64,000 bases of DNA from the IMG/VR virus record IMGVR_UViG_3300022932_000001, positions 62,001 to 126,000 of that record. One strand, given 5' to 3'. This DNA comes from a virus. The notes beneath the pieces were generated by a model. The model was not told where the DNA came from. It saw only the letters and a program-made list of their open reading frames with translations, and made no database searches. Shown here one piece after another: positions 54,562 through 63,311 of the stretch (the first letter of the stretch is position 1; each line of letters opens with the position of its first letter). A program made the translations under genes and the position numbers.

Positions 54562-54584
54562 AAGTGTTGGTTTATTTATATATG

Positions 54585-54655
54585 AGGCAAATACTAGATT
54601 CGAACTAGTGTAAACAGTTTTGCAGACTGTCAGTTAACCACTCACCCAATTTGCC
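54585..54655 (-). tRNA. tRNA-Cys (GCA), class I
   Basis: Acceptor stem GGCAAAT/ATTTGCC, anticodon stem ACAGT/ACTGT with loop CTGCAAA, T-loop TTCGAAT, and U73 (a Cys identity base). No encoded CCA. Lies between two small genes on the same strand. Confidence 0.9.
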
Positions 54656-54662
54656 TTATTGA

Positions 54663-54899
54663 TTATTTACTTTGTAATAGATAACCTTCTAGTTCCCATA
54701 CTTTATCTAAAGCTCTTTGTTTAGCATATGGCTTACCTACTTCTAAATTATAGTTAGCTGGATCTACAGCAGCTGATGTTCCTATAACTTCAAATCCGTT
54801 TTTAAGTGTTAATATACATGCCGCTGTTTTAACTCCTAATGTAACATATTCTTCCTTTAGAATAGCATTATTTACATCTTCAATTGTTACTGTTTTCAT
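54663..54899 (-). CDS. N4 gp49 / Sf6 gene 66 family protein (78 aa)
   Basis: VTIEDVNNAILKEEYVTLGV, CILTLKNGFEVIGTSAAVDP, NYNLEVGKPYAKQRALDKVW then ELEGYLLQ match the pattern of the phage N4 gp49/Sf6 gene 66 family (T-x-x-D-x-x-x-A-I, TLKNGF-x-V-x-G-x-SA, A-x-x-KA-x-D-x-W-x-LEGYL). The family is widespread in phages and its biochemical role is unknown. Leader AACTAACAAT precedes the ATG. It sits between two tRNA genes. Confidence 0.82.
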   Translation of the reverse strand: MKTVTIEDVNNAILKEEYVTLGVKTAACILTLKNGFEVIGTSAAVDPANYNLEVGKPYAKQRALDKVWELEGYLLQSK

Positions 54900-54912
54900 A
54901 TTGTTAGTTTAG

Positions 54913-54985
<73 letters not shown>

Positions 54986-55012
54986 ATAAGAGGGTATTTA
55001 AACCCTCTATGT

Positions 55013-55486
55013 TTAATCTTTTACTACTGATAGATTAGATTTAACATCTTCTCTAGCTTCATCTAACTCTGAATCTTTTTCAGAAGGTGGATCTATTTCA
55101 TCTTTAACAGCATCATCTTCAAGGGATACTTTATTAGCTAAGTTTAAATTAGTATACACTTCTTTAGGAATACCAATTTCTTGTCCTACTTTAATACCAG
55201 CTTCTTTAATCTCAGGATTAAGATCAATATCTTCTTGTGTAATAGTATGTTTAACTATATTCTCCATTTGAAATTGCTCTTGAGCTCTTTGAGCTTCCAT
55301 TTGAGCTTGTTCAAATTGTTGTAATTTATTTACAGCTTCATGTTCTCTTACTTTTAATTCTGCAAATGTTGTATTAAGATTCTGTAACTCAACTTGAAGT
55401 CTTTTTAAAGGCATCAATTGTTTTAATGCATTAACTTGTTCTGCTTGAGTTGGTACTCTTTCTTCCGTATTATTTTGTGGTTTCAT
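55013..55486 (-). CDS. Coiled-coil protein, unknown (157 aa)
   Basis: Residues 1-80 are a long Gln/Glu/Leu coiled coil (LKQLMPLKRLQVELQNLNTT; KLQQFEQAQMEAQRAQEQFQ). Residues 85-125 contain a compact part (NPEIKEAGIKVGQEIGIPKE). The end is acidic (DPPSEKDSELDEAREDVKSN). It resembles scaffold-like or nucleoid-associated phage proteins in composition only. Its ATG is preceded by AAGTATATTATAAT, a promoter-like element. Confidence 0.6.
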   Translation of the reverse strand: MKPQNNTEERVPTQAEQVNALKQLMPLKRLQVELQNLNTTFAELKVREHEAVNKLQQFEQAQMEAQRAQEQFQMENIVKHTITQEDIDLNPEIKEAGIKVGQEIGIPKEVYTNLNLANKVSLEDDAVKDEIDPPSEKDSELDEAREDVKSNLSVVKD

Positions 55487-55586
55487 ATTATAATATACTT
55501 ATTAAGTTTAAACATTACAAATTTATTCTAATTATAGATATAAACTAGTAATAGTTATTATAATTTATATTAAGTTATAAACAATA

Positions 55587-55622
55587 AAAGCTAGTATAAA
55601 TTAATATACTAGCTTTACTATG
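55587..55622 (-). terminator. Intrinsic terminator of the tRNA cluster
   Basis: Perfect 12-bp stem AAAGCTAGTATA/TATACTAGCTTT with a 6-nt loop, followed leftward by TTTTATTGTTT. Starts 7 bp past tRNA-Trp. The remaining 100 bp up to the 157-residue gene are AT-rich without a gene. Confidence 0.88.
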
Positions 55623-55695
55623 CGCCAGAGGTAGGAGTCGAACCTACTTTCTTTGGGGTTGGAATCCAATGCTTGACCAATTAAGCTTCCCTGAC
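55623..55695 (-). tRNA. tRNA-Trp (CCA), probable
   Basis: Acceptor GTCAGGG/CTCTGGC, D-stem GCTT/AAGC, T-loop TTCGACT, G73. Anticodon loop TTCCAAC gives CCA, but the last pair of the anticodon stem (A31-C39) is a mismatch. Reading the loop one base earlier would give UCC (Gly) with a much worse stem. Confidence 0.75.
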
Positions 55696-55698
55696 AAA

Positions 55699-55770
55699 GG
55701 TGTCTAGTCAGATTCAAACTGACCCTAACAAAACCACAATTTGTCGTGCTATCACTAACACTATAGACAC
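55699..55770 (-). tRNA. tRNA-His (GTG)
   Basis: Acceptor GTGTCTA/TAGACAC, anticodon stem ACAAA/TTTGT with loop TTGTGGT, T-loop TTTGAAT, and C73 as usual for His. The base before position 1 is U, so G-1 is not encoded. Confidence 0.88.
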
Positions 55771-55772
55771 AG

Positions 55773-55843
55773 TTGCTCTAAATGGAATCAAACCATTTCT
55801 AAGAAGACCAAAACTTCTTGTACTATCAATATACTATAGAGCA
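55773..55843 (-). tRNA. tRNA-Gln (TTG)
   Basis: Acceptor TGCTCTA/TAGAGCA, D-stem GTAT/GTAC, anticodon stem AGAAG/CTTCT with loop TTTTGGT, T-loop TTTGATT. Anticodon UUG, not a suppressor. Confidence 0.85.
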
Positions 55844-55849
55844 ATATAG

Positions 55850-55923
55850 TATTCAGAACTGGATTTGAACCAGTGACCTACAAGGTATAAGCTTGTTGCT
55901 CTCACCAACTGAGCTATCTGAAT
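55850..55923 (-). tRNA. tRNA-Ile (TAT)
   Basis: Acceptor ATTCAGA/TCTGAAT with A73, D-stem GCTC/GAGC, anticodon stem ACAAG/CTTGT with loop CTTATAC, T-loop TTCAAAT. Anticodon UAU reads AUA directly. Confidence 0.88.
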
Positions 55924-55928
55924 ATATG

Positions 55929-56000
55929 TGGAACCAATAGGATTCGAACCTATGACCAACTCCTCTTCAGGGAATCACTCTACCACTGAGTTACAGTTCC
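55929..56000 (-). tRNA. tRNA-Phe (GAA)
   Basis: Acceptor GGAACTG/TGGTTCC, D-stem ACTC/GAGT, anticodon stem ATTCC/GGAGT with loop CTGAAGA, T-loop TTCGAAT, A73. Confidence 0.9.
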
Positions 56001-56004
56001 AATT

Positions 56005-56035
56005 ACACTTCCATTCTCGTTCGAATGTTTAGTGT
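56005..56035 (-). other. Hairpin spacer between tRNA-Pro and tRNA-Phe
   Basis: Two stacked 5-bp stems, ACACT/AGTGT enclosing CATTC/GAATG, with small internal bulges and a 6-nt loop. It occupies most of the 49-bp gap, where other gaps in the cluster are 2-6 bp. A tRNA-processing guide or a decayed tRNA arm are possible. Confidence 0.6.
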
Positions 56036-56049
56036 GAACCCATAATCAG

Positions 56050-56125
56050 TCTTGTGGGAGGGATTTGAACCCCCGTACTCCTCAGTCCAATTGAGGTTAG
56101 ATAAACCAGACTCCTATACCACAAG
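56050..56125 (-). tRNA. tRNA-Pro (TGG)
   Basis: Acceptor CTTGTGG/CCACAAG, A73, anticodon stem CCTCA/TGAGG with loop ATTGGAC, T-stem GGGGG/CCCTC with loop TTCAAAT. The D-arm is irregular (only TAG/CTA pairs well). Confidence 0.82.
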
Positions 56126-56141
56126 ATAAATTCTCCTTAAA

Positions 56142-56175
56142 CAAAAAACCCCTAATCAATTAAGACTAGGGGTTT
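56142..56175 (-). terminator. Intrinsic terminator upstream of tRNA cluster
   Basis: Stem AAACCCCTA/TAGGGGTTT (9 bp, 12-nt loop) followed leftward by TTTTTTG. It ends the small-gene unit at 57.6-56.2 kb, so the tRNA cluster depends on read-through or an unseen promoter. Confidence 0.85.
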
Positions 56176-56212
56176 ACCTTCGGGAGAAAGGGTAATATTT
56201 TATATTAAACCT

Positions 56213-56284
56213 TTACACACAAATATAACCCCCGTAATAAAACGGATGCCATTGTTGTTGTATAAAGATTTGTTGTACTTTCAT
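56213..56284 (-). CDS. Micro-ORF (23 aa), doubtful
   Basis: MKVQQIFIQQQWHPFYYGGY then ICV and stop. It is in line with the operon and just before the terminator, aromatic and Gln-rich. Could be a leader or micropeptide, or chance. Confidence 0.3.
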   Translation of the reverse strand: MKVQQIFIQQQWHPFYYGGYICV

Positions 56285-56306
56285 ATAGTAAATATAGTGA
56301 TTATTA

Positions 56307-56471
56307 TTAATATCCCCAAAACATTTTTCTTTTATTCTCTCTATCTAATTTTATTAGATATAATAACTCATTTAACATTATCCAATCTTTACCATTAGTA
56401 TATGTTTTACTATCTTCTTTAACTGGATAATAACCTAATCTAGTTATTTCATCTTGATCTTCTATTGTCAT
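56307..56471 (-). CDS. Small protein, unknown (54 aa)
   Basis: MTIEDQDEITRLGYYPVKED then YTNGKDWIMLNELLYLIKLD and a basic, aromatic end (RENKRKMFWGY). It begins 21 bp after the stop of the 70-residue gene. Amphipathic helix in the middle; no family recognised. Confidence 0.55.
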   Translation of the reverse strand: MTIEDQDEITRLGYYPVKEDSKTYTNGKDWIMLNELLYLIKLDRENKRKMFWGY

Positions 56472-56492
56472 TAATCTTCTATTCCTTCCCAG

Positions 56493-56705
56493 TTAGTCTT
56501 CATATATAATTTTTCTAGCATCTTCGAGTTCTTTTTCTTTAATAGTAGTTTCTAAAGTAATAGTCATTAACTTAAATGCATCTTGAACAGCCTTATCAAT
56601 CATAGCTTTTCCTCCACTACCTGTATGTACAGCAATAGATTTTACTGAATGACCATTACTTGTAAATATATCTTTTAAATATTGCTCTATATCTTTACTC
56701 TCCAT
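56493..56705 (-). CDS. Small helical protein, unknown (70 aa)
   Basis: MESKDIEQYLKDIFTSNGHS, then GSGGKAMIDKAVQDAFKLMT and a Glu/Lys helix (IKEKELEDARKIIYED). Its start overlaps the end of the 57-residue frame upstream. Possibly a DNA-binding or phage-regulator fragment; not identified. Confidence 0.55.
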   Translation of the reverse strand: MESKDIEQYLKDIFTSNGHSVKSIAVHTGSGGKAMIDKAVQDAFKLMTITLETTIKEKELEDARKIIYED

Positions 56706-56868
56706 ATATAAAGATACGTATTTCTTCTAGATCTTTCTTAAATCTTTCTTCAGGAGTAATTAATATATCTTCATTATTAAAATCTAAAAATACTAATCTA
56801 AAAGATTGTAAGGGTCCTGTACCTGGACCATTAAGCTTTAATAATTTCTCTGATTCGTTCCAACTCAT
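56695..56868 (-). CDS. Small overlapping gene, unknown (57 aa)
   Basis: MSWNESEKLLKLNGPGTGPL then QSFRLVFLDFNNEDILITPE and ERFKKDLEEIRIF. The ATG lies inside the end of the 132-residue gene (38-bp overlap) and the stop lies inside the start of the next (11-bp overlap). It fills an otherwise empty 125-bp gap, and the sequence looks protein-like (beta strands then a charged helix). Confidence 0.55.
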   Translation of the reverse strand: MSWNESEKLLKLNGPGTGPLQSFRLVFLDFNNEDILITPEERFKKDLEEIRIFIYGE

Positions 56869-57229
56869 CTTGTTTATCTGTGGTTATTTTACTAATCATA
56901 TCAAATAATTGATTAGACATTTCTTTAAGTTTATTTACTTCATCTTTAAGGCTTTTAATCTCTCCTTCAGCTACTGCTAATTTAATAGATGTTGGATCTG
57001 TATATGTTGTGCCTGTACTTGGTGCTGCTATTGTAGTCCATGCTGTTGTACCTTGTATAGTTAAACTATTTTTCCCCATCATTATACCTGAGTTATTATG
57101 AGCTGATTGTATATATTCTTTAGCTGATTGAGCTATTTGATCTACATATTTTTGTTTCTGTTCTTGAGTAGGTATTGCTCTACTTGAATAATCCTGTAAT
57201 TTTGCTGTCTCATCTAATGTTGCACTCAT
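56831..57229 (-). CDS. Coiled-coil small protein, unknown (132 aa)
   Basis: N-terminal helix (QEQKQKYVDQIAQSAKEYIQ), a Thr/Gly-rich central part (LTIQGTTAWTTIAAPSTGTT) and a C-terminal coiled coil (EIKSLKDEVNKLKEMSNQLF). Compact central beta part plus coiled coil resembles small phage trimeric or assembly proteins. Coupled to the 59-residue gene upstream by a 4-bp overlap. Confidence 0.6.
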   Translation of the reverse strand: MSATLDETAKLQDYSSRAIPTQEQKQKYVDQIAQSAKEYIQSAHNNSGIMMGKNSLTIQGTTAWTTIAAPSTGTTYTDPTSIKLAVAEGEIKSLKDEVNKLKEMSNQLFDMISKITTDKQDELERIREIIKA

Positions 57230-57405
57230 ATATCTTCTTTTAAATATTGTCTAATATTATACAATTCTAATAATCTATTTATTTCTTTAGCATCTCCAAG
57301 AGATATTATATCAAATTTAGGATTATATACAGTAGTTACTTTTATACCATTATAAATATAAGTATTTAATATTTCTCCTGTATCATTATCTATCTCCCAA
57401 GCCAT
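57226..57405 (-). CDS. Small protein, unknown (59 aa)
   Basis: MAWEIDNDTGEILNTYIYNG, then KVTTVYNPKFDIISLGDAKE and a helical end (INRLLELYNIRQYLKED). Leader AACCAATAATAATAAT precedes the ATG; the stop overlaps the next ATG (ATGA). Not identified. Confidence 0.6.
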   Translation of the reverse strand: MAWEIDNDTGEILNTYIYNGIKVTTVYNPKFDIISLGDAKEINRLLELYNIRQYLKEDI

Positions 57406-57471
57406 ATATTATTATTATTGGTTGTCGACGCTAACTTATAAAGGACTACCTTAATAAATCAAATATACTAA

Positions 57472-57636
57472 TTATTTATAATAAAGTTCTATCTCATCAA
57501 CTTTAACTTTAATATCTATAAAATCCATAGATTCTATTGGATCATTTGACATAATCTTTATTATAAATCCATCCTCTAATACATTCCATATAATACATTT
57601 CTTATTATTCCATATTACTCTATCATGTTTCTTCAT
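57472..57636 (-). CDS. Small KOW/SH3-like protein (54 aa)
   Basis: MKKHDRVIWNNKKCIIWNVL then EDGFIIKIMSNDP and KVKVDEIELYYK. Basic N-terminus and strand pattern (DRVIW, CIIWNV, FIIKIM, IDIKV, EIELYY) resemble a mini SH3/KOW domain. First leftward gene at the divergent junction; TATATTTG lies 2 bp before the ATG, so the mRNA may be nearly leaderless. Confidence 0.55.
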   Translation of the reverse strand: MKKHDRVIWNNKKCIIWNVLEDGFIIKIMSNDPIESMDFIDIKVKVDEIELYYK

Positions 57637-57759
57637 GTACAAATATAAAAATTTTTACCCATAATTTTTATAGTGTGTTTTAGTGTGTATGTGGGTACTA
57701 CTCAATGCTCCCCGTCTTACTATTAGCGGCAATGGTGCCCCACTTTAAACTATATTATT
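57637..57759. promoter_or_regulatory. Divergent promoter region
   Basis: 123 bp between oppositely read genes. On the right-hand strand it holds GTGTGTTTTAGTGTGTATGT followed by GGGTACTACTC, and AACTATATTATT directly before the 91-residue gene. On the left-hand strand it has TATATTTG (Bacteroidota -7 type). The GT-rich part recurs at 58.84 kb. Confidence 0.5.
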
Positions 57760-58035
57760 ATGGCTGAATTAAGCAATCAAGGATTAATTCCTTTAGACAG
57801 ATTTATGAAAGTAGCAGGATTGGATGGACTTCAATTCAAAAAAGGTAAAGGCAGACAATTCTGTTCTACACCTGTTGGAGTAGTCTTTATGGCTGACAAA
57901 TTCAACAAAGATGATGTACAGAAATTCATTACTGTAGCTGGTCCAGGTGTTGAAACCAAACAAGGTGTATCTTTAGAAGGCACATTGTGGTTGGTGAATG
58001 CTCAAGTAGAAGATGGTGATTTAATTGGTGCTTAA
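57760..58035 (+). CDS. First rightward gene, unknown (91 aa)
   Basis: MAELSNQGLIPLDRFMKVAG, then FKKGKGRQFCSTPVGVVFMA and an acidic end (WLVNAQVEDGDLIGA). Basic middle loop (KKGKGRQF) and alternating strands suggest a small beta protein. Codon use is less AT-rich than its neighbours, and the position directly at the divergent promoter suggests strong early expression. Candidates are a nucleic-acid-binding or host-takeover protein. No family recognised. Confidence 0.65.
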   Translation: MAELSNQGLIPLDRFMKVAGLDGLQFKKGKGRQFCSTPVGVVFMADKFNKDDVQKFITVAGPGVETKQGVSLEGTLWLVNAQVEDGDLIGA

Positions 58036-58059
58036 TCAACACCACTCCTACGGGAGTTC

Positions 58060-58535
58060 TAATGGGTACACAAGCATGTTATAATAGACATGCTTGTTAC
58101 TTAAACTATCATTATGTGATAGACTAATGTTCTACCTATATTATGTTCTTTATTAATATAGTTAATTATAACATCTAATTGGGTCTCAAATACTATGAAG
58201 AGAACAAGACAGCTAAACCATGGAGGAAGTTGATGTTATATTAATCTTTTATAGAGAGTGATTCATTGTAAGCTTCTTACTTTGTCCACATTGTGGTTCT
58301 ATTCTCTATTATTAATACTATAGATCTTATTAGTCTGGTTTTATGTGAAGGCCAGCAACCTATGATGACTCCTTGAGTAGGCTAATAGACATAGTATATT
58401 AACTACTATAGACATGTTATTTGGATTAAGTTATAAGATCTATGATCAATCAGCCAATAATACATCATCTATAGTAGTTATTTTCTTTAAAGTAAAATAT
58501 GTTTCATACTCATCCTGTGATAAAGTATAAACATC
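58060..58535 (+). ncRNA. Candidate large structured RNA A
   Basis: No coding frame over 12 codons runs through this 476-bp block. It holds many perfect or near-perfect helices: ACAAGCATGT/ACATGCTTGT (58070-58097); CTATCA/TGATAG (58106-58122); TATAACATC/GATGTTATA (about 58167-58240); ATAGAGA/TCTCTAT (58251-58309) enclosing GTAAG/CTTAC and CCAC/GTGG; ATAGATCTTAT/ATAAGATCTAT (11 bp, 58320-58443) enclosing CTGG/CCAG, ACTC/GAGT and ATAGTA/TACTAT; and GTTT-ATACT/AGTATAAAC (58501-58532). Such nested, multi-branched pairing is typical of large phage RNAs such as GOLLD or ROOL. I cannot assign it to either. Strand follows the neighbouring genes. Confidence 0.6.
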
Positions 58536-58584
58536 TGAAATATAATTAACTATCAATTAACTAATAATAACTAAACTTCTACCT

Positions 58585-58839
58585 ATGAAACTGATTTCCC
58601 TTATAAAAAGAAACAAAACAGAGTTATTTAATTGTTTATTATTATCTCTGTCTATATATATACTACTAGCTCTGTTGTTATATACTGTTGATCATCTAAT
58701 TACTCCAGAACATATAACACCAAACACTTTCTTACAATGTTTATCTAATACATTCGTTGTATATTCTGCACTTATCTACTCTTTTATTAGTTGTTATATC
58801 TATATAATCGACGTTAAAACATGTTTAGAGGACGTTTAG
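58585..58839 (+). CDS. Small two-helix membrane protein (84 aa)
   Basis: Two predicted membrane segments: about 16-38 (LFNCLLLSLSIYILLALLLY) and about 57-77 (FVVYSALIYSFISCYIYIID), with a basic N-terminus (KLISLIKRNK) likely cytoplasmic. It could be a holin-like, superinfection-exclusion or membrane-targeting protein; topology with short loops fits small holins. No lysis enzyme is adjacent, so this stays open. Confidence 0.6.
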   Translation: MKLISLIKRNKTELFNCLLLSLSIYILLALLLYTVDHLITPEHITPNTFLQCLSNTFVVYSALIYSFISCYIYIIDVKTCLEDV

Positions 58840-58952
58840 GTGTGAGTGAGTGTGTGGGTATTATCAAGAAGAACAATCCATAACAAGTTAGATTAGTCTA
58901 ACTTTACCAATTAGAGATAACTAACTAATAGCTATAAACTAATCTAACTCAA
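58840..58952 (+). promoter_or_regulatory. GT-rich intergenic region with leader
   Basis: Begins with GGTGTGAGTGAGTGTGTGGG then TATTATC, close to the GT-rich stretch at 57.68 kb, and ends with the leader AATAGCTATAAACTAATC before the 92-residue gene. Confidence 0.4.
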
Positions 58953-59231
58953 ATGAGAACACCAAAACTAATATGTCCAATACATTCTAATATAGTAGAT
59001 TGTGAAGAATATGAAATGGGTATTATAATACCTTATCAAGTAAATGATATATATACTATTACTAATTGGATTGATACAAATATGGATTCAAGACTAGTAA
59101 ATAAAGCATATGAAGTGTATGGTGATTGTATTATAACTCATATGATTGTTATAGAAAGACTTGATAATGAAGTATTCAATAATGATCTAATTGCTAAATG
59201 TATTATTATTAATCAAGATATACAGTTATAG
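58953..59231 (+). CDS. Small protein, unknown (92 aa)
   Basis: MRTPKLICPIHSNIVDCEEY then MGIIIPYQVNDIYTITNWID and KCIIINQDIQL. Three Cys in the first 45 residues and mixed alpha/beta character. No family recognised. First gene of the run of small genes with short recurring leaders. Confidence 0.55.
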   Translation: MRTPKLICPIHSNIVDCEEYEMGIIIPYQVNDIYTITNWIDTNMDSRLVNKAYEVYGDCIITHMIVIERLDNEVFNNDLIAKCIIINQDIQL

Positions 59232-59277
59232 TATCCTTCACAACTAATTGATTATCAACCTTTTAACAAATACGACA

Positions 59278-59481
59278 ATGAAAAAGATATTAATTGCTAA
59301 CTTGGTATACTTACCAATAGTAAATACAAACAAATATGTAGCTGGTGATATTAGTGGTAATATATATCTTAATGAGATATATACTCTAGATGAGATTAGA
59401 GATAAACATAAAACTAGTACTAATAAGTTACATGAACTAGATAACTTACATGAATTAACTAAAGCTTGGGGAACTAGATAA
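59278..59481 (+). CDS. Small protein, unknown (67 aa)
   Basis: Start chosen at the ATG after the leader TACGACA (a longer TTG frame exists). MKKILIANLVYLPIVNTNKY, then VAGDISGNIYLNEIYTLDEI and a charged helix (RDKHKTSTNKLHELDNLHEL). Its stop overlaps the next ATG (TAATG). Unknown. Confidence 0.6.
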   Translation: MKKILIANLVYLPIVNTNKYVAGDISGNIYLNEIYTLDEIRDKHKTSTNKLHELDNLHELTKAWGTR

Positions 59482-59720
59482 TGAAGAGATACTATATAAC
59501 AATTATAGATCTTTCTACAGGAAGTAGAAGAGATTATACTAGAAATACAGCTGCTGAAACTATACCTGTTATTAATGATCACTTAGGTGGTTTTAATAAC
59601 ATAGGTGGAAGTAGAGAAGCTCAAAAGGTTAGTGATATTGGTAGTGATTACTGTTTAACAGGATTTACTAAAGATAATACCAAAGCTTATTCTATTATAT
59701 GTATTACTTTACCTGAATAG
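59481..59720 (+). CDS. Small protein, unknown (79 aa)
   Basis: MKRYYITIIDLSTGSRRDYT, then RNTAAETIPVINDHLGGFNN and a beta-rich end (TKAYSIICITLPE). Alpha/beta ferredoxin-like order is possible. Coupled to the previous gene. Confidence 0.58.
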   Translation: MKRYYITIIDLSTGSRRDYTRNTAAETIPVINDHLGGFNNIGGSREAQKVSDIGSDYCLTGFTKDNTKAYSIICITLPE

Positions 59721-59770
59721 TTCTTTCTTCAGGAAATAGAGACGGAGGCTTTTAACTAAATTAAATAATC

Positions 59771-59947
59771 ATGACAAAGGAAGAAAAACAATTATTACCT
59801 ATGATTCCTCATAATGCATTAAATAATGCTATTAGATGGGATATAGAATCTAGTAGTATTAAACAAGATTTATATCATTTTAGTTATGATGGTAAGTTTG
59901 TTTATATACATTTTGATAAACGTGAATCACGTAGGTATTCTATTTAA
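59771..59947 (+). CDS. Small protein, unknown (58 aa)
   Basis: MTKEEKQLLPMIPHNALNNA then IRWDIESSSIKQDLYHFSYD and basic end KRESRRYSI. Leader AACTAAATTAAATAATC immediately before the ATG matches the one at 60.05 kb, which supports the start. Not identified. Confidence 0.58.
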   Translation: MTKEEKQLLPMIPHNALNNAIRWDIESSSIKQDLYHFSYDGKFVYIHFDKRESRRYSI

Positions 59948-59958
59948 TCAAATAATAA

Positions 59959-60041
59959 GGTCATATGTCAGAGTGGTAATGAGATGGTCTGCAACACCAT
60001 TAAAACCGAAAGGAACGTTGGTTCGAATCCAACTATGACCT
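59959..60041 (+). tRNA. tRNA-Cys (GCA), class II-like variable arm
   Basis: Acceptor GGTCATA/TATGACC, anticodon stem ATGGT/ACCAT with loop CTGCAAC (anticodon GCA), T-stem GTTGG/CCAAC with loop TTCGAAT, U73. Between anticodon and T arms are 16 nt (TAAAACCGAAAGGAAC) with a small CC-GAAA-GG hairpin instead of the usual 4-5. D-arm TCA/TGA only. U73 and GCA both support Cys despite the long arm. Confidence 0.85.
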
Positions 60042-60066
60042 CAAATATTAACTAAATCAAATAATC

Positions 60067-61152: not shown

Positions 61153-61602
61153 ATGAAAAAGTTCAATCAAGAAATTAAAATCACAGTACAAGTAGACACT
61201 ATTGCTAACAATCTATTAGCATCATTTGATAAGTCATTTCCTCATGCTGAGATGTTGACTGAGACTATTATTGCTATAGGAATAGAGAAGGATACAATTA
61301 GTCTTATCTATAATAATCTTTGTGGATTTACTAATGATATTGACTTTAAAATAGGTCAAGAAGTAGTATGTTCAGATAAGATATATGGATATGTACCTAA
61401 AACAACTAGAGAATTAGGTGTTCCAGTTACATATGATCAAGAATATGTAGTTATAGGTAATTGTGTTATCACAGATATCAATACTATTAAAGATAGTAAA
61501 GTACAAATTAAATACTCTGCACTTAATAGAAGAGGAGAATCTGAACAACTAGAGAAATGGGTATCACATACTACATTAACTTTAGTTGAAATAGCAGAAT
61601 AA
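61153..61602 (+). CDS. Beta-rich small protein, unknown (149 aa)
   Basis: N-terminal helical/strand part (EIKITVQVDTIANNLLASFD), then from residue 60 an SH3/KOW-like run (IGQEVVCSDKIYGY; YVVIGNCVITDINTIKDSKV; QIKYSALNRRGESEQLEKWV). Leader AATACGACAAC. May bind nucleic acid or a host protein. No family recognised. Confidence 0.6.
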   Translation: MKKFNQEIKITVQVDTIANNLLASFDKSFPHAEMLTETIIAIGIEKDTISLIYNNLCGFTNDIDFKIGQEVVCSDKIYGYVPKTTRELGVPVTYDQEYVVIGNCVITDINTIKDSKVQIKYSALNRRGESEQLEKWVSHTTLTLVEIAE

Positions 61603-62086: not shown

Positions 62087-62272
62087 ATGAATAAGATACA
62101 AGTATATAAACATGCTATAGATGTATTTGGTAAAGAGAAAGCTAAGAGATGGTTTAATAGTAATATTAGAGCATTAAATGGTAAGACACCAGCTCAGTAT
62201 ATGAAGTTTCCTGGAGGAATAGTAGAAGTAGATAATATACTTGGTAGAATAGAATATGGCTTATATAGTTAG
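62087..62272 (+). CDS. Orphan MbcA/ParS/Xre-type antitoxin domain (61 aa)
   Basis: AIDVFGKEKAKRWFNSNIRA then LNGKTPAQYM, GGIVEVDNILGRIEYGLYS fits the C-terminal toxin-binding domain of the MbcA/ParS/Xre antitoxins (DUF2384): A-x-x-x-FG-x-x-x-A-x-x-W-x-x-x-x-x-x-x-L-x-G-x-TP, then G-x-x-x-V-x-x-x-LG-x-I-x-x-G. In that family this part binds RES-domain NAD-depleting toxins. No RES toxin or N-terminal helix-turn-helix lies nearby, so it is a free domain. It may neutralise a host RES toxin (anti-defence), which is inference. Preceded by a 1-bp gap. Confidence 0.75.
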   Translation: MNKIQVYKHAIDVFGKEKAKRWFNSNIRALNGKTPAQYMKFPGGIVEVDNILGRIEYGLYS

Positions 62273-62277
62273 ATATT

Positions 62278-62613
62278 ATGATACCTGATATAATTACAAA
62301 ATATATATTTATAAAATGTAATGATGATTTAGAATTTAAACAAGCTAATGAATATTTAAATTCTATAGATATAAAATATTACAGTCCTTCTAAAACTAGA
62401 TATTCAGAGGAACAAAAAGATTATAATTCTTATATATATTTAACAGAAGATAATAAAAATTTATTTATGGTCCATTATGATCTTAAAAAAGAGGTTTCTA
62501 GGAATAATATAATATATACTTGGTCATATATAAAAGAGGAAATTGGTTATAAAGACTTTAATATAGATGAAATAATATCTAATCTAGATAAGTTAGAAGA
62601 TAAATATAAATAA
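62278..62613 (+). CDS. Small protein, unknown (111 aa)
   Basis: MIPDIITKYIFIKCNDDLEF, then QANEYLNSIDIKYYSPSKTR, a beta segment (NSYIYLTEDNKNLFMVHYDL) and an acidic helix (DEIISNLDKLEDKYK). Not a RES toxin: it lacks the Arg-Glu-Ser motif. Six-base gap to the antitoxin-like gene, so probably co-expressed with it. Confidence 0.6.
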   Translation: MIPDIITKYIFIKCNDDLEFKQANEYLNSIDIKYYSPSKTRYSEEQKDYNSYIYLTEDNKNLFMVHYDLKKEVSRNNIIYTWSYIKEEIGYKDFNIDEIISNLDKLEDKYK

Positions 62614-62614
62614 T

Positions 62615-62812
62615 ATGACTAAAGAAGAAATTATAGAAGCATATGGTGTGTATTGGCAACATGTATCAGATTTTGTAGATGAAGAAGGTTGGGCTAGTAC
62701 TAAAGATACAGGTCTTATTGATGCATATTATGAACATAATACTGGTAATCCAATACAATTTGAGAAACATCCTAAAAGAAGATGGAGACCATTAATGTTA
62801 AAAGATAAATAA
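62615..62812 (+). CDS. Small protein, unknown (65 aa)
   Basis: MTKEEIIEAYGVYWQHVSDF, then VDEEGWASTKDTGLIDAYYE and basic end (FEKHPKRRWRPLMLKDK). The YGVYW...V.EEGW pattern reminds me of short phage proteins of Bacteroidota phages; no function known. Last gene before the second gene-free block. Confidence 0.6.
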   Translation: MTKEEIIEAYGVYWQHVSDFVDEEGWASTKDTGLIDAYYEHNTGNPIQFEKHPKRRWRPLMLKDK

Positions 62813-62824
62813 AGATATGTTCTG

Positions 62825-63260
62825 GCGAACAAGTGTAATTCAAACTTCAGGATTGAAGCAGTTATAGTCTGTATAGTAATGTATCATTCTCAGAGGGTTT
62901 TAATTCTTCTAATTAATTATTAAATACAATCAAGGTGACCAAATAAAAGTAGGTCTTAAGCATTAAAGCACGATTAAGTAATTGTAGATTAATTAAAGGG
63001 TTAAAATCCTCCTGATATTCAAAACGGTGACGAGGATTATATCCAAGATAAGCTAGATTTGTATCAGCTTCCAAAGGGTGAGCTAATATAATATAGTAGT
63101 TCAGTGTAGAACATAGCAACTATTTAGCTAAGGTCGATAGGAGACAATACTATACCTATCCTATATTATATTAGAATACAGATGGCTGTAATTAAATCAT
63201 AGGAAGAGCTGTAAAGGGAGGTCCGTCAAAAGCTTAAACGAGAGGGAGTAATAATTAATT
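62825..63260 (+). ncRNA. Candidate structured RNA B
   Basis: About 440 bp without a convincing gene on the reading strand. Helices: CTTCA-GGAT-TGAAG (62845-62858); GACC/GGTC (62937-62955); CTTAA/TTAAG (62955-62978); AATCCTC/GAGGATT (63005-63038); AAGCT/AGCTT (63050-63070); GTTC/GAAC (63099-63112); GATAGG/CCTATC (63136-63160); TACAG-ATGG-CTGTA (63177-63190) inside CCTAT/ATAGG (63160-63203). The right end is G-rich (GGGAGGTCCGTC). It does not resemble structured RNA A in primary sequence. Function unknown; strand by neighbours. Confidence 0.5.
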
Positions 63261-63311
63261 CACGTCTTATATGATTTATAAATAAATAATAAAAAACTTA
63301 AACATAAAACT

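What the first reader, a model, noticed from the sequence alone, without database searches (positions are those of the whole stretch)
62087..62272. Free-standing antitoxin domain: possible anti-RES toxin protein
The 61 residues match the toxin-binding half of MbcA/ParS/Xre antitoxins, with no toxin or DNA-binding half nearby. A phage copy could bind and silence a host RES toxin that depletes NAD on infection. This would be a simple anti-defence mimic.
Basis: partly seen in the sequence, partly recalled or inferred. Interest (0 to 1): 0.75.

Follow-up and report, generated by a model that had tools for sequence, protein, structure and literature searches.

The report
Phage protein resembling half an antitoxin
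A crAss-like phage carries a 61-residue gene that is just the toxin-binding half of a bacterial RES antitoxin, without its DNA-binding half or any toxin, so it probably plugs NAD-destroying toxins of the host during infection; no binding or rescue has been tested.

Summary
[quoted passage not shown] There is no helix-turn-helix, and no RES toxin in the 134,893-base phage record. A confident AlphaFold2 model (pLDDT 91) matches 13 PDB chains, all RES antitoxins, before any other protein.

New evidence supports 'anti-RES': (1) a very distant crAss-like phage (major capsid 22% identical) carries the same domain at the matching place, with a membrane helix instead of the HTH and an almost unchanged C-terminal tail; in a solved complex the last helix enters the RES active site; (2) in sampled bacteria an intact tail goes with an adjacent RES gene (24 of 25 loci), a lost tail with none (0 of 6); (3) HTH-less antitoxin-RES pairs exist in bacteria; (4) other short phage proteins share the fold.

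Best explanation: a trans-acting antitoxin that keeps host or plasmid RES toxins off during infection (about 0.6). Not shown: binding, rescue, the host's RES toxin, expression timing, or that RES modules defend against phages. New variant of a known kind.

The parts
62087..62272 (+). 61-aa free-standing toxin-binding domain protein (stop codon included)
   Evidence: PF09722 52.5 bits; NF049845 model positions 54-112 of 112; AlphaFold2 pLDDT 91.4
62114..62260 (+). PF09722 domain, residues 10-58
62216..62269 (+). last predicted helix (residues 44-56) and tail YGLYS (57-61): the part expected to enter the RES active site
   Evidence: helix; tail conservation; role by analogy with NatR (PMC11535050)
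61921..62085 (+). 54-aa ORF of unknown function just upstream (1-base gap)
   Evidence: 94% identical in the relative
62278..62613 (+). 111-aa ORF of unknown function just downstream (5-base gap), fast-evolving; no RES match
   Evidence: 55% identical in the relative
62615..62812 (+). 65-aa ORF of unknown function
61153..61602 (+). 149-aa gene of unknown function; the only other gene of the small-ORF region shared with the distant phage L129

Best explanation
The gene encodes a trans-acting antitoxin: a free-standing copy of the toxin-binding half of a RES/Xre-type antitoxin. Made during infection from the small-ORF region that runs opposite to the structural genes, it folds as in MbcA, ParS, Xre and NatR, docks on a RES toxin and puts its last helix and tail (GRIEYGLYS) into the NAD site. 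That keeps NAD intact when the host's or a plasmid's own antitoxin is lost after host takeover, or when a RES module is triggered as a defence. Because the HTH is absent, it should not bind the toxin operon's promoter. Shown: domain, predicted fold, truncation, no toxin in the record, retention of the tail in two distant phages. Inferred: binding, neutralisation, timing and benefit.
For: Domain and truncation; no RES in the record. Confident model; PDB ranks 1-13 are all RES antitoxins, TMq 0.71-0.85. A distant crAss-like phage has the domain at the matching place with a hydrophobic N-terminal segment instead of the HTH; tail 10/11 identical, rest 13/50. Last helix of NatR enters the NatT NAD cavity (PMC11535050). 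In 31 bacterial loci 24 of 25 with a full tail have an adjacent RES gene, 0 of 6 without. HTH-less antitoxin with a full RES gene in L121; a 72-aa ParS chain solved bound to ParT, in one entry named a fragment. Phage antitoxin mimics are a known strategy (PMC11481870).
Against: No binding or rescue data; host and its RES content unknown. RES modules not known to act against phages, and NatT did not affect more than 50 phages (PMC11535050). Phage copies depart from conserved positions T41, R46 and E49. NatT's flap also contacts helix alpha-1 of NatR, so some RES toxins may need the missing half. dN/dS near 1 between the two close copies, on only 10 changes.
Confidence: 0.6

Rival explanations
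1. The domain was re-used to bind something other than a RES toxin (a phage or host protein), keeping the fold but not the target. The membrane-anchored form in the other phage would then be an adaptor.
For: Conserved middle positions differ in the phage copies; the L129 form has a hydrophobic N-terminal segment; no RES toxin is known for the host.
Against: The conserved part is precisely the toxin-plugging tail, and in sampled bacteria that tail goes with RES genes.
Confidence: 0.18
2. It is the antitoxin of a phage-borne toxin-antitoxin pair with an unrecognised toxin, most likely the 111-aa ORF that starts 5 bases downstream.
For: Antitoxin-first order and tight spacing as in RES/Xre operons; the 111-aa gene evolves fast (55%).
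Against: The 111-aa ORF has no RES match and is shorter than a RES domain (157 positions); the distant phage L129 has no counterpart of it beside its domain gene.
Confidence: 0.08
3. It is a decaying remnant of a captured RES/Xre module without a function.
For: dN/dS near 1 between the two close copies; a 61-codon solo frame without a RES gene nearby also occurs in a bacterium (L123).
Against: Open frame with the complete C-terminus in three phage records; no HTH or RES debris; codon-position GC as in the neighbour; kept at a matching place across very distant phages.
Confidence: 0.08

Closest known systems
RES/Xre type II antitoxins (MbcA, ParS, Xre of P. putida, NatR, VPA0769; PF09722, NF049845)
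   Same: Same C-terminal domain, predicted fold and tail
   Different: No HTH half, no adjacent RES toxin, encoded by a phage
HTH-less short antitoxins beside RES genes in Acidobacteriota (L121, 80 aa; L124, 74 aa)
   Same: Domain-only antitoxin of similar size
   Different: Paired with a RES gene (full in L121, partial ORF in L124); bacterial
Phage antitoxin mimics: Dmd, AdfA/AdfB, pseudo-ToxI (PMC11481870)
   Same: Small phage product proposed to neutralise a toxin of a host TA system
   Different: AdfB shows under 15% similarity to the host antitoxin DarG; here the protein is a recognisable piece of the antitoxin, and the function is not shown
Short phage proteins with the same predicted fold (A0A6J5LGC4, A0A6J5P0S5, A0A6J5L663, A0A6J7XBF0)
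   Same: Foldseek hits of 70-95 aa; A0A6J7XBF0 is named as a toxin-binding domain protein
   Different: 16-21% identity; their sequences and gene neighbourhoods were not available here

Membership tests
[quoted passage not shown]
   PF09722 52.5 bits over a 24.5 cut-off; fold matches
RES/Xre type II antitoxin | N-terminal Xre-like HTH half | tested here: not met
   Model positions 1-53 absent; no HTH in neighbours
RES/Xre type II antitoxin | Adjacent gene for a RES toxin | tested here: not met
   No PF08808 in the whole record at E <= 10
RES/Xre type II antitoxin | Last helix and tail block the RES active site | tested here: inconclusive
   Helix and tail are conserved in sequence and model; no complex could be predicted here
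RES/Xre type II antitoxin | Autoregulates its own promoter | not testable with these tools
   No HTH, so not expected
Phage antitoxin mimic (Dmd/AdfB kind) | Small phage-encoded protein without its own cognate toxin | tested here: met
   61 aa in a virus record with no RES gene
Phage antitoxin mimic (Dmd/AdfB kind) | Neutralises a host toxin and aids infection | not testable with these tools
   Needs co-expression and infection assays

The most novel reading that the evidence does not exclude
HTH-less toxin-binding domains are a recurrent phage anti-RES family, with soluble and membrane-anchored forms, and their existence means that RES/Xre modules, whose role is unresolved, do restrict phages in nature.
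Probability: 0.35. Interest if true: 0.8.

Novelty: new variant of a known kind. Interest (0 to 1): 0.6.

Why it matters
RES toxins are widespread NAD-consuming enzymes without an agreed role; the NatT study states that none had been implicated in immunity (PMC11535050). Phages that keep only the RES-binding half of the antitoxin, in two distant lineages, hint that RES toxins cost phages something, and the protein is a ready reagent to test it. The case would also be one of domain theft: a recognisable piece of the antitoxin used as the inhibitor, whereas the mimic AdfB bears no clear likeness to the host antitoxin.

Tried and rejected
tblastn in 50,697 phage records found no relative of the 61-aa protein. 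Querying with a full Xre or a consensus that I wrote by hand found only MT836610.1 above noise, whose ORFs look like ParA, MobC and RelBE genes, i.e. plasmid-like (my reading), so it was not counted. PHROGs and PADLOC have no matching family for the phage protein. Pattern scans of viral contigs with the single protein, a first alignment and the Pseudomonas-type tail added nothing beyond L002; the GRIEYG-type alignment found L129. A single-sequence AlphaFold2 run was poor (pLDDT 63) and was replaced by the four-sequence run. A functional link to the 149-aa gene was considered and weakened: two other phage records have that gene without PF09722. The papers on ParST, MbcTA and P. putida RES-Xre were not held. 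A first run on bacterial loci ignored strand and was redone.

Full report
Observation. The ORF at 62087-62272 (+) encodes MNKIQVYKHAIDVFGKEKAKRWFNSNIRALNGKTPAQYMKFPGGIVEVDNILGRIEYGLYS. It matches PF09722, the Xre/MbcA/ParS C-terminal toxin-binding domain, at 52.5 bits (E 5e-14, cut-off 24.5), and is the only such match in the 134,893-base virus record. NCBI's RES/Xre antitoxin model NF049845 aligns only from position 54 to its end at 112, and TIGR02293 from 76 to its end at 133: the protein lacks the DNA-binding half and runs to the exact C-terminus. No HTH or RES family was found in the neighbours scanned, nor a RES domain anywhere in the record at E <= 10. The record may be incomplete.

Context. 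The phage is crAss-like: its terminase matches crAss-like phages such as cr55_1 at about 24%, and its major capsid protein (MCP) has at least 598 relatives among viral contigs. The gene lies in a run of small (+) ORFs opposite to the structural genes, packed between a 54-aa ORF (1-base gap) and a 111-aa ORF (5-base gap). The nearest relative, L002, has the same order with 89% identity, plus an extra 139-aa ORF just upstream. Identities to that relative are 98% for the 149-aa gene, 94% for the 54-aa and 65-aa ones, 89% here and 55% for the 111-aa ORF. The two close copies differ at 10 bases, dN 0.056 and dS 0.060: too few changes to judge selection, and no sign of strong constraint over that short distance.

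A second phage. A search with a family alignment found L129, in a 52-kb record. It encodes 95 aa: a strongly hydrophobic segment (best 19-residue mean 2.6), a basic stretch, then the same domain (PF09722 43.7 bits). The phages are very far apart (MCP 22%, portal 27%, terminase 26%), yet collinear; among the genes detected by BLAST in the small-ORF region only the 149-aa gene (28%) and this domain (39%) are shared. In both genomes the domain gene starts about 17 kb from the MCP, on the other strand (coordinates). The last 11 residues are 10/11 identical and the rest 13/50 (Fisher p 1e-4). No RES is in that record. The 149-aa gene also occurs in two phage records without the domain, and among 47 records related by MCP only L002's has the domain, many of them fragments, so it looks like an accessory gene.

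Fold. AlphaFold2 with four natural sequences gave pLDDT 91. Its best PDB matches, ranks 1-13, are all RES antitoxins: P. putida Xre, VPA0769, ParS, MbcA and NatR, with query TM-scores of 0.71-0.85; Foldseek E-values are modest (best 0.007), as expected for 61 residues. Among predicted viral proteins the best matches include four of 70-95 aa from uncultured phages, one already named as such a domain protein, and a 136-aa putative Xre antitoxin, so stand-alone copies are probably not unique to these phages.

How it should work. In NatRT the last helix of NatR extends into the NAD cavity of NatT (PMC11535050). The phage protein keeps that helix (44-56) and the tail. In 31 bacterial loci from 199 Acidobacteriota genomes, 25 keep a full tail and 24 of these have a RES gene beside them, while none of the 6 with a lost or cut tail does (tails scored by eye, one phylum, best-scoring loci only, and loci cut by contig ends were not removed). 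The domain alone can plausibly serve: L121 has an 80-aa antitoxin with no HTH overlapping a full RES gene, L124 a 74-aa one beside a partial RES ORF, and the PDB holds a 72-aa ParS chain bound to ParT. A helper that only binds the toxin, and has lost or replaced the promoter-binding half, is what a phage would need. Two uses fit equally: countering a RES module that senses infection, or holding down RES toxins set free when host takeover stops antitoxin synthesis. RES modules are common on plasmids: 1,594 plasmid records match this query, and those listed are mostly annotated with a RES gene at the match.

Limits. No binding was shown, no host is known, and NatT was reported not to affect more than 50 phages (PMC11535050). 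Phage copies differ from the bacterial norm at T41, R46 and E49. The NatT flap contacts NatR helix alpha-1 as well, so flap-bearing toxins may be poor targets. Bacteroidota genomes could not be sampled. The pattern-based viral scans reach only sequences with near-exact motifs, so rarity is not established.

Novelty. Phage antitoxin mimics are known (AdfB, Dmd, pseudo-ToxI; PMC11481870), and RES modules in phages too (PMC9503650). In the papers searched I found no phage inhibitor of RES toxins; the library is open-access only. I call it a new variant of a known kind.

Noticed in passing
62813-63310: About 480 bases with no sizeable ORF on the + strand, right after the operon: 88% conserved in the relative G001 over 455 columns, folds better than all 100 shuffles (z -2.75), no Rfam match. 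Candidate structured RNA.
   Followed up: partly
L002 4589-5008: A 139-aa ORF with an HELCH motif and hydrophobic segments, absent from the window, is inserted just upstream of the domain gene; no Pfam match.
   Followed up: partly
61153-61602: 149-aa gene with relatives in at least three other crAss-like or similar phage records (28-45%) and no match in Pfam at a meaningful score or in 50,697 phage records.
   Followed up: partly
54584-60042: Nine tRNA genes: eight on the - strand at 54584-56125 and a second tRNA-Cys(gca) on the + strand at 59959-60042.
   Followed up: no
L121 1046-1734 (-): A natural HTH-less 80-aa antitoxin overlapping a 149-aa RES gene in an Acidobacteriota genome.
   Followed up: partly
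L128 (MT836610.1): A GenBank 'Bacteriophage sp.' record whose ORFs look like ParA, MobC and RelBE genes, so probably a plasmid fragment; it carries a short 88-aa ORF similar to this domain.
   Followed up: partly
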